IMG/VR virus record: IMGVR_UViG_3300027708_000083
Location: 1 to 57,391 of that record
Origin: a virus
Length of the DNA stretch: 57,391 nt
Reading direction: 5' to 3' (one strand)
In this document: in pieces, positions 53,952-57,280 of the stretch
Position numbering within the stretch: position 1 is the stretch's first letter
Layout of the letters: the number at the start of each line of letters is the position of its first letter
Program-made: the position numbers and the translations under genes
The notes under the pieces: generated by a model
What the model was told of the DNA's origin: nothing
The model's input: only the letters and a program-made list of their open reading frames with translations
Database searches by the model: none

Positions 53952-54653
53952 ATGTTCAAGCTATTAAGTACTGCAAACCCTAAGATCCAAAAGGGCACCA
54001 AGATGGGCTATTTGAGCTTCATCCTGCACCTTGCACCTGCTGACTTGTCAGGCAAAGAAACATGCCCCAAGCGCACCGCAGGCTGTACTAGTGCATGCCT
54101 TAACACCGCAGGACGTGGTGGCATGTTCAAGCGCGGTGAAAACACTAACATGATCCAAAAGGCACGTATCCGCAAGACCCAGTACTTCTTCAACAATCGT
54201 GCAGAGTTTATGGTAGATCTAGCCAACGACATCAAGAAGGCTATACGTTTCGCAGAGCGCAAGGGCTTGACTCCTGTGTTCCGCTTAAACGGTACGAGCG
54301 ATTTGAGCTGGGAGAAGTACGATGTCATCGAAGGGTTCAACATCTTTGAAATGTTCCCTACTGTACAGTTCTATGACTACACTAAGGTCTTGGGACGTAA
54401 GGTTGCGCACCTGCAGAACTATCACCTTACATTCTCTAAGGCAGACGGCAATGACGCTGATGTCGCAGAAGCATTAATGCAGGGCATGAGTGTAGTGGCT
54501 GTCTACGACAAGATCCCAGAGGGTGTTCCGAGTGCAGACGAAACTGATCTGCGCTTCCTAGACCCAAAAGGCACTATGCTAGGGCTCAAGGCCAAGGGTC
54601 GTGCTAAGAAGGACTATTCAGGCTTCGTAATCCGCTTGACAGAACAGGCTTAA
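53952..54653 (+). CDS. Gp88-like phage protein
   Basis: 233 residues. YLSFILHLAPADLSGKETCP, TAGCTSACLNTAGRGG, QKARIRKTQYFF and VFRLNGTSDLSWEKY match the phage 'gene product 88' family, function unknown. Four cysteines in CPKRTAGCTSAC may bind metal. SD AAAGGAGCGAAACT, the repeated leader of this region. Confidence 0.8.
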   Translation: MFKLLSTANPKIQKGTKMGYLSFILHLAPADLSGKETCPKRTAGCTSACLNTAGRGGMFKRGENTNMIQKARIRKTQYFFNNRAEFMVDLANDIKKAIRFAERKGLTPVFRLNGTSDLSWEKYDVIEGFNIFEMFPTVQFYDYTKVLGRKVAHLQNYHLTFSKADGNDADVAEALMQGMSVVAVYDKIPEGVPSADETDLRFLDPKGTMLGLKAKGRAKKDYSGFVIRLTEQA

Positions 54654-54664
54654 GGCCTTATAAT
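54636..54664 (+). promoter_or_regulatory. Sigma70-type promoter
   Basis: TTGACA, 17 bp, TATAAT; the -35 is inside the last codons of the Gp88-like gene. Confidence 0.85.
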
Positions 54665-54696
54665 ACTAACATACAGACACAAAAGGAGCGAAACTT

Positions 54697-54972
54697 ATGA
54701 TGTTTACACTAGAGATATACAAGAAGGATCGCCGCAAGAAAGAGGGCGAACGACTGATTGGCAAGTACGACTATGATCGCCCAGATCGTGAGGCCATGTT
54801 GCGTGAGAGCAATGAGCTCTATGATGCTTACCCACCACGCCTAGGCTATAGGTTTGCTATACATGAAACCTATGTAAAGAAGACCAACTTGATGGGTGGT
54901 GCAGAGTTCCTGGAGCGGTACGATACGCCCTACTTCTGCTCACCAGCATCCGAATCCTACTGGAGCATGTAG
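54697..54972 (+). CDS. Conserved phage protein
   Basis: 91 residues: FTLEIYKKDRRKKEGERLIG, KKTNLMGGAEFLERYDTPYF, CSPASESYWSM. A pattern recurring in phages; function unknown. SD AAAGGAGCG. Confidence 0.7.
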   Translation: MMFTLEIYKKDRRKKEGERLIGKYDYDRPDREAMLRESNELYDAYPPRLGYRFAIHETYVKKTNLMGGAEFLERYDTPYFCSPASESYWSM

Positions 54973-54973
54973 G

Positions 54974-55002
54974 TTGACTGGGTGCCCAAAAGGCAGTATA
55001 AT
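54974..55002 (+). promoter_or_regulatory. Sigma70-type promoter
   Basis: TTGACT, 17 bp, TATAAT. Confidence 0.85.
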
Positions 55003-55032
55003 AAACACTTAAACACACACAGGAGCGAAACT

Positions 55033-55272
55033 ATGCGTACAATTACCACCCTGCGTAACGGCAACATCTATCAGATGGACATACAAGAAGCCATTGACAT
55101 TGTGCAGGCCTATGCTCGTCAGAACACGGGCGGGGATCTGTTGCAAGCGGCCACTGAGATGACGGACTTGGCCACACTGGACGAGTTGCCGACTATACAA
55201 AAGATTGCCATCCGACGCTTCATGCGAGACATGGGTCGTTTGCTTGCACCGGTTGACGTTGAAACAGTTTGA
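55033..55272 (+). CDS. Small conserved phage protein
   Basis: 79 residues, helical: IYQMDIQEAIDIVQAYARQN, LDELPTIQKIAIRRFMRDMG. Start from AGGAGCGAAACT; longer frame rejected. Function unknown. Confidence 0.65.
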   Translation: MRTITTLRNGNIYQMDIQEAIDIVQAYARQNTGGDLLQAATEMTDLATLDELPTIQKIAIRRFMRDMGRLLAPVDVETV

Positions 55273-55281
55273 GCATATAAT
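55253..55281 (+). promoter_or_regulatory. Sigma70-type promoter
   Basis: TTGACG, 17 bp, TATAAT; overlaps the end of the preceding gene. Confidence 0.85.
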
Positions 55282-55309
55282 AAACACTTAAACACACACA
55301 GGAGCGAAC

Positions 55310-55600
55310 ATGCTAACGATTCAAGAAGTTAACCGGGCTATCATGCTACAAGAGTGGACCAACACTGAGTTGAGTTCTATGATTGATGCAGTCAAGTGGA
55401 ACAAAGAGCAATTGGCCAAGCGCATCAAGTACTCAATCCGCACAGGCGACAATGTTGAGTTCACTAGTTCGAAGACAGGGCGAGTGACCAGAGGCTTTGT
55501 AACCAAAGTGGCTATCAAGTATGTCACAGTGAATACAGGCATGGGCCTGTGGAGAGTTCCGGCTAATATGCTTACAGTGGTTGACAAAGAGTTGGCCTGA
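55310..55600 (+). CDS. Conserved phage protein
   Basis: 96 residues. Helical start (IQEVNRAIMLQEWTNTELS) and a beta-barrel-like end (DNVEFTSSKTGRVTRGFVTK, MGLWRVPANML), recalling KOW-type RNA-binding folds. SD AGGAGCG. Confidence 0.65.
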   Translation: MLTIQEVNRAIMLQEWTNTELSSMIDAVKWNKEQLAKRIKYSIRTGDNVEFTSSKTGRVTRGFVTKVAIKYVTVNTGMGLWRVPANMLTVVDKELA

Positions 55601-55609
55601 GAGTATAAT
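55581..55609 (+). promoter_or_regulatory. Sigma70-type promoter
   Basis: TTGACA, 17 bp, TATAAT; the -35 is in the last codons of the preceding gene. Confidence 0.85.
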
Positions 55610-55636
55610 TAACACTTAGCAACAAAGGAAGCAAAG

Positions 55637-55723
55637 ATGGAATGTACTATATGTAGGAAGTGGCACTGGAAGGGTTTCGAGGTTTGCTTGCAGAACAAGG
55701 GACCAATTCCACACAAAGGATAG
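55637..55723 (+). CDS. 28-residue Cys/His mini-protein
   Basis: MECTICRKWHWKGFEVCLQN and a short tail. CxxC plus later Cys and His suggest a mini zinc knuckle. It has its own promoter and AAAGGAAGC site, which makes a real tiny gene likely. Confidence 0.5.
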   Translation: MECTICRKWHWKGFEVCLQNKGPIPHKG

Positions 55724-55728
55724 GGTTG

Positions 55729-55757
55729 TTGACAAGGACTAGTTCATGTGCTATAAT
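55729..55757 (+). promoter_or_regulatory. Sigma70-type promoter of the structured RNA
   Basis: TTGACA, 17 bp, TATAAT. The -10 lies at the centre of an 11-bp perfect inverted repeat (55742-55769). Confidence 0.9.
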
Positions 55758-55769
55758 AAGCACATGAAC
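55742..55769 (+). promoter_or_regulatory. Operator-like 11-bp inverted repeat
   Basis: GTTCATGTGCT and AGCACATGAAC flank ATAATA, covering the -10 and start site; a good candidate for repressor binding. Confidence 0.55.
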
Positions 55770-56243
55770 AGTTAGAAAAGAGTTAAAGGTTACCTACACC
55801 GTTAGGCGCCCAGGTAGAGGACAGTATCGACGGATACGCTTGAGACTGGGGCATGAAACAAGCACCTAAGACGTGTTGGAGATGCGGCGGATCATGTAGG
55901 CAGTAATGATGAAGGCAGACGATCTAGCAGACGGTGCTAGCGGCTAGTCCGGACTTCCTTTAGTCTTTTTCTAACTGACGTTTATGTCCCGGGAATCCAC
56001 GCTGAGTTCGCAACTCAGGGCAGTGAGTAGGTGAAACTCCTATAGGGACGCCATTTAAGGCATTCATGCGAAAGCTGATGTAAGGCCAATCTAACATCGC
56101 TGAGGGACAAGTGCGTTCCTGTAGGGCTAGCCATAGGTTAGCGATTAACAAGAGTCCCTACGAAACCTGCTAGTCGACCCGGGTGAGACTTCCCAAAACC
56201 CTCCCGGAACTTCTTGATAAAGACCCTACTGCTTGTAGGGACT
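55764..56243 (+). ncRNA. Long structured non-coding RNA of unknown class
   Basis: About 480 bases behind a consensus promoter, with no plausible ORF on the transcribed strand. It contains many compact perfect stems: GTATC/GATAC, CTAGCA/TGCTAG, CTGAGTT/AACTCAG (3-base loop), GATGT/ACATC, GCTAGCC/GGTTAGC (one G-U) and a closing AGTCCCTAC/GTAGGGACT (56153-56161, 56235-56243) just before the next promoter. TATCGACGG then GGGGCATG faintly recalls tmRNA, but no acceptor stem or ALAA tag is seen; RNase P motifs are absent. A large ornate phage RNA (GOLLD or ROOL kind) is possible. Confidence 0.6.
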
Positions 56244-56271
56244 TGACAGTTTGCCCAAAATACGCTATAAT
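56243..56271 (+). promoter_or_regulatory. Sigma70-type promoter
   Basis: TTGACA, 17 bp, TATAAT; begins on the last base of the RNA's closing stem. Confidence 0.88.
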
Positions 56272-56301
56272 TAACACATACACAAACACACAGGAGCGTA
56301 T

Positions 56302-56565
56302 ATGTTAACACAATGCATAGCAAAAGCAAAATTAGTTTATAACAAAAAATTGCAATCTTATAAACTAGTTGTCGCATTTAACACACACAAAACAATTAAA
56401 AAAATAGGTAATACAGAAGTTGTAAAATACAACTTCCCTACACAAGCAAAATGCGCTTATGTTAGCGGGGACTTACTTGCAAATAATTTGCAAAACGAGC
56501 TTGCAAATGTAATGCCAAATGTTTACAAAGCAATACGCACAAACACAGTAGAGTTTGTGGACTAA
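56302..56565 (+). CDS. Small hypothetical protein
   Basis: 87 residues: AKAKLVYNKKLQSYKLVVAF, then a Lys-rich patch and NLQNELANVMPNVYKAI. No match known. SD CAGGAGCG. AT-rich, A-rich codons unlike the genes before 55.7 kb. Confidence 0.65.
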   Translation: MLTQCIAKAKLVYNKKLQSYKLVVAFNTHKTIKKIGNTEVVKYNFPTQAKCAYVSGDLLANNLQNELANVMPNVYKAIRTNTVEFVD

Positions 56566-56591
56566 AAACAACACTACTGCGCACAGGGTTA

Positions 56592-56620
56592 TTGACAGTG
56601 TGCGCAGTATATGCTATAAT
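56592..56620 (+). promoter_or_regulatory. Sigma70-type promoter
   Basis: TTGACA, 17 bp, TATAAT. Confidence 0.88.
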
Positions 56621-56651
56621 TAATTTTTAACAAGCACTAGGAGCGAAAACT

Positions 56652-57038
56652 ATGCAAACATTTACTACACTACACACAAACGGATGCGGCTATTGGAGTA
56701 ACACTGCTACAGCAGTAGCAATTACAAAATTGGACTTGCAGTACTGTACAGCAGAGAGAGATTTTGGAGAGCTGTGTGTGTACTTTAACACAAACGATTG
56801 GGACGTTAATACTAACGGACTTATATACACAGACAAATTGTTTATGCAGGAGTTGCGTACATACTTGCAAACTATTGGCTTTACGGAAGCGGAAGCTAAC
56901 GACGTAAGCTACAGCGAACAGGGTATGCAAAGCAATGTATATGTTAGCTGTGACGTGGGAGCTGTGTTTATTGCAGGACTTATGCGCTTAGACAGTGCGC
57001 ATGTTAACGCTGTAGTAGCAGAGTGCGCAGATGTTTAA
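56652..57038 (+). CDS. Conserved phage protein
   Basis: 128 residues: CGYWSNTATAVAITKLDLQY, YTDKLFMQELRTYLQTIGFT, MQSNVYVSCDVGAVFIAGL. No function known. SD AGGAGCGAAAACT. Confidence 0.65.
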   Translation: MQTFTTLHTNGCGYWSNTATAVAITKLDLQYCTAERDFGELCVYFNTNDWDVNTNGLIYTDKLFMQELRTYLQTIGFTEAEANDVSYSEQGMQSNVYVSCDVGAVFIAGLMRLDSAHVNAVVAECADV

Positions 57039-57255
57039 CAACATAGTGCAGTGGGCCGGAACGGCCTGCTTTCTCTGCATGTACACTATAATGTCGTTCT
57101 TCCCACAGCACAACAGCTACAGCATATTGGCTGGGTTTTGTGGGGGAACGCTGTACATGATATGGAGTTTACGTGTACGCAACTGGCCGCAGACACTAAC
57201 TAACGTTGTGTCAATATCCATATGCGCTATAGGGTTATACAAAGCGTTTAGTTGA
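57031..57255 (+). CDS. Three-span small membrane protein
   Basis: 74 residues: FNNIVQWAGTACFLCMYTIM, YSILAGFCGGTLYMIWSLRV, NVVSISICAIGLYKAF. A phage family I have seen elsewhere, resembling small PnuC-like or SWEET-like bundles in size only. Overlaps the previous gene by eight bases. Confidence 0.65.
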   Translation: MFNNIVQWAGTACFLCMYTIMSFFPQHNSYSILAGFCGGTLYMIWSLRVRNWPQTLTNVVSISICAIGLYKAFS

Positions 57256-57280
57256 CGTTTTGGCTAAAATGTGCTATAAT
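57252..57280 (+). promoter_or_regulatory. Sigma70-type promoter
   Basis: TTGACG, 17 bp, TATAAT; overlaps the end of the preceding gene. Confidence 0.88.

What the first reader, a model, noticed from the sequence alone, without database searches (positions are those of the whole stretch)
55764..56243. Unclassified ~480-nt structured RNA under a strong promoter
No gene fits, yet a perfect promoter precedes many compact hairpins and a final 9-bp closing stem that ends where the next promoter begins. It may be a large phage RNA like GOLLD/ROOL, a degenerate tmRNA, or a new class.
Basis: partly seen in the sequence, partly recalled or inferred. Interest (0 to 1): 0.75.

Follow-up and report, generated by a model that had tools for sequence, protein, structure and literature searches.

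The report
New phage RNA gene cluster
This stretch of a lake-virus genome does not code for protein but for a string of intricately folded RNAs, at least two of them belonging to RNA families absent from the public RNA library, and one of these recurs once per genome in many giant freshwater viruses, often at the head of their tRNA gene arrays.

Summary
The non-coding interval is real, but it is a string of modules and not one 480-nt RNA. After a 12/12 sigma-70 promoter lie module A (55768-55977), tRNA-like T (55986-56053), small hairpin B (56057-56094) and pseudoknotted C (56096-56207). Each also occurs in other phage loci in other combinations or alone, so they evolve separately.
A and C are supported by covariation. 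A: 58 sequences, covariation 0.351 versus 0.142 shuffled. C: 18 sequences, 0.375 versus 0.146, including two pseudoknots. Neither matches Rfam 15, and no match turned up in named phages. The exact A pattern occurs in at least 119 IMG/VR stretches (scan row-capped), many 100-360 kb, one copy per genome.
In 20 of 79 A loci, A follows an rrn boxA-like sequence; in the arrays inspected, tRNAs follow. GOLLD and permuted tmRNA occur there as separate genes, so A is neither.
Most likely A is a stable, trans-acting RNA made with the phage's translation RNAs; its activity is inferred, not shown. Single-sequence folding is not exceptional (z -1.46).

The parts
55729..55757 (+). Promoter TTGACA-17-TATAAT (extended, TG before -10)
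   Evidence: 12/12 match; predicted start of transcription near 55764
55742..55769 (+). Perfect 10-bp dyad GTTCATGTGC-TATAATAA-GCACATGAAC centred on the -10 element; candidate operator
   Evidence: 25 perfect dyads around TATAAT among held loci, 24 of them in two forms (17 like this one, 7 with the compensated GTCTATGTGC/GCACATAGAC); the examples listed stand before module A or Z RNAs, except one protein gene in L033
55768..55977 (+). Module A, new structured RNA family. Outer stem 55771-55780 with 55965-55975; P1 55783-55789/55957-55963; P2 55793-55798/55895-55900; P2b from 55799/up to 55890; arms P3, P4, P5
   Evidence: 58-sequence alignment A1; covariation; covariance model R1 finds it at 55783-55963, 151 bits; helix coordinates
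55986..56053 (+). Module T, tRNA-like: stem GTCCC/GGGAC ending G-CCA, hairpin with loop TTCGCAA, hairpin TAGG-TGAAACT-CCTA, no D arm
   Evidence: Also in L004, L030 and, inside a huge-phage tRNA array, L178, with compensatory changes in all three stems; not called by ARAGORN or Rfam
56057..56094 (+). Module B, small hairpin AAGGC-hairpin-GTAAGGCC-AATCTAA
   Evidence: 11 distinct sequences in held loci; weakest of the four modules
56096..56207 (+). Module C, double-pseudoknot RNA: P1 56096-56101 with AGCGAT, interleaved with P3 56121-56126/56156-56161; H-type pseudoknot 56171-56175/56187-56191; P5 56179-56183/56203-56207
   Evidence: 18-sequence alignment A2; covariation; model R2
56224..56240 (+). 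Hairpin CCCTAC-TGCTT-GTAGGG before the next promoter, without a T run on this strand; possible weak end of transcription
   Evidence: listed on the minus strand; absent from L002, so not part of module C

Best explanation
The interval is a non-coding RNA transcription unit of a freshwater tailed phage. It is read from its own strong, probably regulated early promoter and yields several separately folding stable RNAs (A, T, B, C). Shown: the modules, their conserved secondary structures (A and C by covariation), their independent occurrence, one copy of A per genome, the promoter, and the boxA-A-tRNA order in huge phages. Inferred: the transcript is handled like rRNA and tRNA precursors (long leader-trailer-like outer stem around A, CCA-ending tRNA-like T as a processing point, boxA against premature termination where present), and the mature RNAs, A above all, act in trans as stable RNAs on the translation or RNA-processing machinery of the infected cell. 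The molecular activity of A and C (ribosome or RNP binding, scaffold, or catalysis) is not known.
For: Covariation in A: 96.6% of cells paired, score 0.351 against 0.142 +/- 0.010 shuffled (0/500) and at most 0.101 for slid partners. In C: 92.9% paired, 15 of 26 pairs changed on both sides, 0.375 against 0.146 (0/500), slid at most 0.141. G-U pairs at fixed positions in both point to the + strand as the folded one. Covariance model R1: 51 hits in 82 sources (loci fetched through two neighbouring proteins, not through the RNA, plus the window), hits in 77 of 78 loci fetched by pattern, and among 55 further loci only in five that carry A for other reasons. One copy in each of 15 records of 107-364 kb that matched, and one R1 hit each in two whole records. 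Modules recombine: A-T-B-C in the window, A-D-C in L002, Z-A-C in L070, A-C-G in L102, A followed by tRNA-Asp and B in L062, C alone after tRNA-Met in L071. What follows A differs (new promoters, unrelated ORFs, tRNAs), which argues against a leader for one gene. rrn boxA-like CTTTAAA(A/C)A 53-62 nt upstream of A in 20 of 79 loci; arrays of 10-27 tRNAs in most such loci scanned, with GOLLD and permuted tmRNA in some A-bearing arrays.
Against: No transcript or mutant data. Folding energy of the window sequence is not exceptional. In several loci A lies directly before an RBS and ORF (L075, L182, L195) or before a promoter without an obvious terminator, so a cis role is not excluded. The window phage shows no tRNA in its 57 kb and has no boxA before A, so the tRNA-array link holds only for relatives. 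A homologues were partly collected by a pattern, and their 3' ends were chosen by P1 complementarity, which inflates conservation of the 5' motif and pairing of P1; P2 is less affected.
Confidence: 0.6

Rival explanations
1. Module A is a cis-acting leader: a structured antitermination element (working like HK022 put RNA or the EAR element) or a regulatory 5' UTR that lets polymerase read through the following array or early genes.
For: A lies at the start of the transcript in the window and most relatives, no strong terminator follows it, boxA precedes it in 20 loci, and in L075, L182 and L195 an RBS and ORF follow directly.
Against: In about a dozen loci a new promoter starts within some 30 nt after A (L018, L076, L080, L082, L084, L109, L112, L162, L175, L192), the downstream genes are unrelated, A is larger than known put or EAR elements, and module Z precedes A in some loci so that A is not always first.
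Confidence: 0.15
2. A and its partners are scaffold RNAs that assemble into RNA-only or RNA-protein particles, as shown for GOLLD and ROOL.
For: Same kind of place (phage tRNA islands), similar rarity of function clues, large structured RNA; GOLLD sits in the same arrays; GOLLD and ROOL form nanocages (PMC12286853).
Against: A is about 200 nt and C about 115 nt, much smaller than GOLLD or ROOL; no sequence or model similarity; no assembly data.
Confidence: 0.12
3. Regulatory small RNAs or sponges that base-pair with host or phage mRNA or titrate a host RNA-binding protein.
For: Strong early promoters and short non-coding transcripts.
Against: Conservation is of long-range helices and internal-loop residues rather than of one exposed seed, and A is one copy per genome across very different phages.
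Confidence: 0.1
4. Not a functional RNA: chance structure in a spacer between early genes.
For: Folding energy alone is unremarkable.
Against: Covariation far beyond shuffles and slides, conservation across more than a hundred contigs.
Confidence: 0.02

Closest known systems
GOLLD RNA (RF02032)
   Same: Structured non-coding RNA of phages, often in or near tRNA arrays, sometimes with a tRNA inside (PMC12286853); found in some of the same arrays as module A.
   Different: Unrelated in sequence and model; GOLLD is a separate gene in L141 and L198 beside A; GOLLD is over 800 nt in many members, A is about 200.
ROOL RNA
   Same: Phage-encoded, near tRNA islands, function unknown (PMC12286853).
   Different: No Rfam match in the window or in A-bearing loci; ROOL is about 600 nt.
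tmRNA, one-piece or permuted (RF04321)
   Same: Present in some of the same phage arrays; the window has a superficially similar TCGACGG...GCATG stretch.
   Different: In module A that stretch is a stem-loop (GTAT-CGACGG-ATAC); no ARAGORN or Rfam tmRNA call in the window.
Bacterial rRNA operon leader (boxA, leader-trailer helix)
   Same: In 20 of 79 loci a boxA-like sequence and a hairpin precede A, and a long stem encloses A; tRNAs follow in the arrays inspected. Antitermination for untranslated RNA is the known role of boxA (PMC4807359, PMC10250234).
   Different: The RNA enclosed is not rRNA (no Rfam match); the window copy itself lacks boxA.
Stable RNAs of unknown function in the T4 tRNA cluster (from general knowledge, not searched)
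   Same: Non-tRNA stable RNAs encoded within a phage tRNA gene cluster.
   Different: No homology tested.

Membership tests
GOLLD | Matches the RF02032 covariance model | tested here: not met
   No hit in the window or in 12 related records; the same model hits L141 and L198 at other places than A
ROOL | Matches the Rfam ROOL model | tested here: not met
   No hit in the window or in A-bearing loci in full Rfam scans
GOLLD/ROOL | Homo-oligomeric RNA nanocage | not testable with these tools
   Needs cryo-EM or native gels
tmRNA | tRNA-like domain plus tag reading frame, recognised by ARAGORN or Rfam | tested here: not met
   separate permuted tmRNA genes in L094, L133, L160
tRNA (module T) | Cloverleaf recognised by ARAGORN or RF00005 | tested here: not met
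   D arm absent, T-loop sequence not canonical
tRNA (module T) | CCA end, 7-nt anticodon-type loop with U33 | tested here: met
   GGGAC-G-CCA and loop TTCGCAA, kept in L004, L030, L178
RNase P RNA, group I or II intron and other Rfam families | Matches the Rfam model | tested here: not met
cis-regulatory leader (riboswitch type) | Same gene family downstream in relatives | tested here: not met
   Downstream features differ among 79 loci
processive antitermination RNA (put/EAR type) | Suppresses termination in cis | not testable with these tools
   Needs a terminator-readthrough reporter

The most novel reading that the evidence does not exclude
Freshwater huge phages carry a recombining toolkit of several unknown structured RNA families (A, C, T, and others seen in passing: Z, D, E, F, G) expressed like a miniature rRNA operon (boxA, leader-trailer-like stem, tRNAs, tmRNA, GOLLD). 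Module A is a core, single-copy RNA of this kit that acts on or within the ribosome or as a ribozyme during takeover of translation.
Probability: 0.25. Interest if true: 0.92.

Novelty: categorically new. Interest (0 to 1): 0.78.

Why it matters
Modules A and C are covariation-supported RNA families absent from Rfam 15, and no match to them was found in the named-phage collection. A occurs in at least 119 viral stretches by exact pattern alone, once per genome, including phages of more than 300 kb. Such conservation in otherwise divergent phages implies a function. Its place with tRNAs, permuted tmRNA, GOLLD and boxA suggests that phage takeover of translation uses RNAs that have not been catalogued, and offers concrete, testable molecules for the long-open question what the orphan RNAs of phage tRNA islands do.

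Tried and rejected
tmRNA resemblance (TCGACGG...GCATG...CATGTAG): rejected, these bases lie in a local stem-loop and in P2 of A, and no tmRNA call was made. Complementarity of GGTTACC to the 16S 3' region: noticed, set aside because GG and CC of that motif are in P1 and P2. Family RF02032 on 12 records found nothing, but its control genomes did not ring; replaced by full Rfam scans in which GOLLD rings elsewhere. blastn of the window RNA, of two other A versions and of module C against named phages: no match. Exact A pattern in 84,980 bacterial and archaeal genomes: five hits, all without the rest of A and judged chance (none found by R1). R1 in the nearest named huge phages XacN1, RAS14, Tunturi_5 and X1: nothing credible (best E 0.46). 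The seeming HDV-like topology of C was considered and rejected because of the extra hairpin between the 5' strands of P1 and P3. The inner P3b stem of A is only moderately supported (31 to 52 of 58 paired per position) and is not relied on. Paper searches found no description of these RNAs; subscription journals are not held.

Full report
1. What was claimed and what is there. The interval 55764-56243 begins at the predicted start of a perfect sigma-70 promoter (55729-55757) and ends at the next perfect promoter (56243-56271). No + strand ORF above 41 aa overlaps it, ARAGORN and Rfam call nothing, and permissive Rfam matches are at chance level. The fold of the single sequence is not exceptional (z -1.46, 6 of 100 shuffles as good), so compact hairpins alone prove nothing. 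The claimed 9-bp closing stem exists as complementary letters, but its 3' half is missing in L002, whose module C is otherwise nearly identical, and its 5' half belongs to helix P3 of module C, which covaries with another partner.

2. Homologues show a string of modules. The window is a whole 57-kb IMG/VR record. Loci fetched through two neighbouring proteins contain partial homologues of the interval in different combinations. The 5' part (A) and the 3' part (C) lie 1.2 kb apart in L006 and more than 3 kb apart in L032 and L071. Other loci insert a tRNA-Asp (L062, L004), or carry further modules before (Z) or after (B, D, G) module A. In the window the order is A, T, B, C.

An alignment of 58 cores (A1) supports P1, P2 and P2b: 96.6% of cells paired, covariation 0.351 against 0.142 for shuffles (0/500), and at most 0.101 when partners are slid. 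Examples are CCTACA/TGTAGG, CCTAGA/TCTAGG, CCTAGT/ACTAGG and CCCACA/TGTGGG in P2. Inside P2 lie two arms (P3, and P4 often with a GNRA loop), and outside it a peripheral arm P5 of at least three exchangeable types. Caveat: the 5' motif was used to collect many members, and 3' ends were chosen by P1 pairing. A covariance model (R1) nevertheless finds A in loci collected through proteins: 51 hits in 82 sources, including members that do not match the pattern (L010, L013, L042, L059, L074). It hits 77 of 78 pattern loci and, among 55 further loci, only five that carry A for other reasons. A is single copy: one match in each of 15 of 18 large records, and one R1 hit each in whole records of 346,856 and 356,312 bases. 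It is not found in the nearest named huge phages, by blastn in named phages, or in bacterial genomes.

4. Module C. Eighteen members (A2; found through) support five helices: 92.9% paired, 15 of 26 pairs changed on both sides, 0.375 against 0.146 shuffled (0/500), slid at most 0.141. P1 and P3 are interleaved (a pseudoknot), and a second, H-type pseudoknot covaries (AGTC/GACT, AAGTG/CACTT, GGTG/CACC, GGGTC/GACCC). In the five window-type rows P1 is shifted by one column in the alignment and pairs as ATCGCT/AGCGAT, so P1 is under-counted. Model R2 finds 26 places in the loci searched, several without A in the held stretch; in L071 C follows tRNA-Met and ends at a normal terminator. C is thus a gene of its own.

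5. Modules T and B. T is a tRNA-like three-stem element ending in GCCA, without a D arm. L004, L030 and L178 (the last inside a huge-phage tRNA array) keep it with compensatory changes in all three stems (GTCCC/GGGAC to GTCCT/AGGAC, CTGAG/CTCAG to CAAAG/CTTTG, TAGG/CCTA to CAGG/CCTG). It is not a canonical tRNA by ARAGORN or Rfam. B is a short hairpin with a conserved tail (11 sequences) and is the least certain.

6. Context. In 20 of 79 A loci a sequence like the rrn boxA lies 53-62 nt upstream of A. Of the boxA loci scanned for tRNAs, most continue into arrays of many tRNAs. Arrays that carry A also contain, as separate genes, GOLLD (L141, L198) and permuted tmRNA (L094, L133, L160). This excludes that A is either of them and places it among translation-related RNAs. 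In phages like the window's, A instead has its own promoter, whose -10 element sits in the middle of a perfect 10-bp dyad. Of 25 perfect dyads around TATAAT in the held loci, 24 are of two forms related by symmetric changes, nearly all before A or Z RNAs. This points to a dimeric regulator of these RNA promoters (inference).

7. Mechanism. Shown: several independent, conserved RNA structures in one non-coding unit. Inferred: one precursor is transcribed and processed, by its outer stems and tRNA-like element, into stable RNAs that act in trans. The varied downstream sequence (new promoters, unrelated genes, tRNAs) and the single copy per genome argue against a leader for one gene. A processive antitermination element remains the main rival, because A is usually near the transcript start and boxA may accompany it. 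The company of tRNAs, tmRNA and GOLLD favours a role in the infected cell's translation; the activity itself is unknown.

8. Novelty. A and C are not in Rfam 15 at any meaningful score, and no match was found in the named-phage collection. The literature at hand describes GOLLD, ROOL and OLE (PMC12286853) and earlier collections of structured RNAs (PMC2864571); paper searches returned nothing that describes these elements, but only open-licence papers could be searched. What is new is the RNA families and their modular arrays; the general habit of phages to keep orphan structured RNAs near tRNAs is known.

Noticed in passing
L127 8100-9350, L181 1590-1800, L160 11200-12312 (reverse), L102 3270-3470: Further unknown RNA-like segments between phage tRNAs (called E, F, G, H here). 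G recurs in 31 places, 18 distinct sequences, e.g. L127, L133, L155, L102; E in 3, F in 5 places.
   Followed up: partly
L005, L009, L010, L022, L027, L032, L055, L059, L068, L070 and others: Module Z, a roughly 100-nt conserved segment (GGCGATCCTC...GGGTYGTARCCAAGGGAYACG...GGAGACTCNGCC) directly before or near module A, 15 distinct sequences, under the same type of promoter.
   Followed up: partly
L141:7981-8445, L198:10468-10931; L094:6264-6540, L133:8312-8586, L160:4125-4687: GOLLD RNAs and permuted tmRNAs inside tRNA arrays of uncultured large phages.
   Followed up: partly
window 55742-55769; L002, L004, L006, L027, L030, L033, L060: Perfect 10-bp dyad centred on the -10 box, in two symmetric-variant forms, almost only at promoters of these RNAs: candidate operator of an unknown regulator.
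   Followed up: partly
L062:9761-9835, L004:5402-5476: tRNA-Asp (GTC) called by ARAGORN but, in L062, not by the Rfam tRNA model, with a stem of 5-6 pairs and a 3-nt loop in place of a normal D arm, lying between module A and module B.
   Followed up: partly
window 54636-57280: Nearly every small gene in this early region has its own near-perfect sigma-70 promoter: eight with 11 or 12 of 12 matches in about 3 kb.
   Followed up: no
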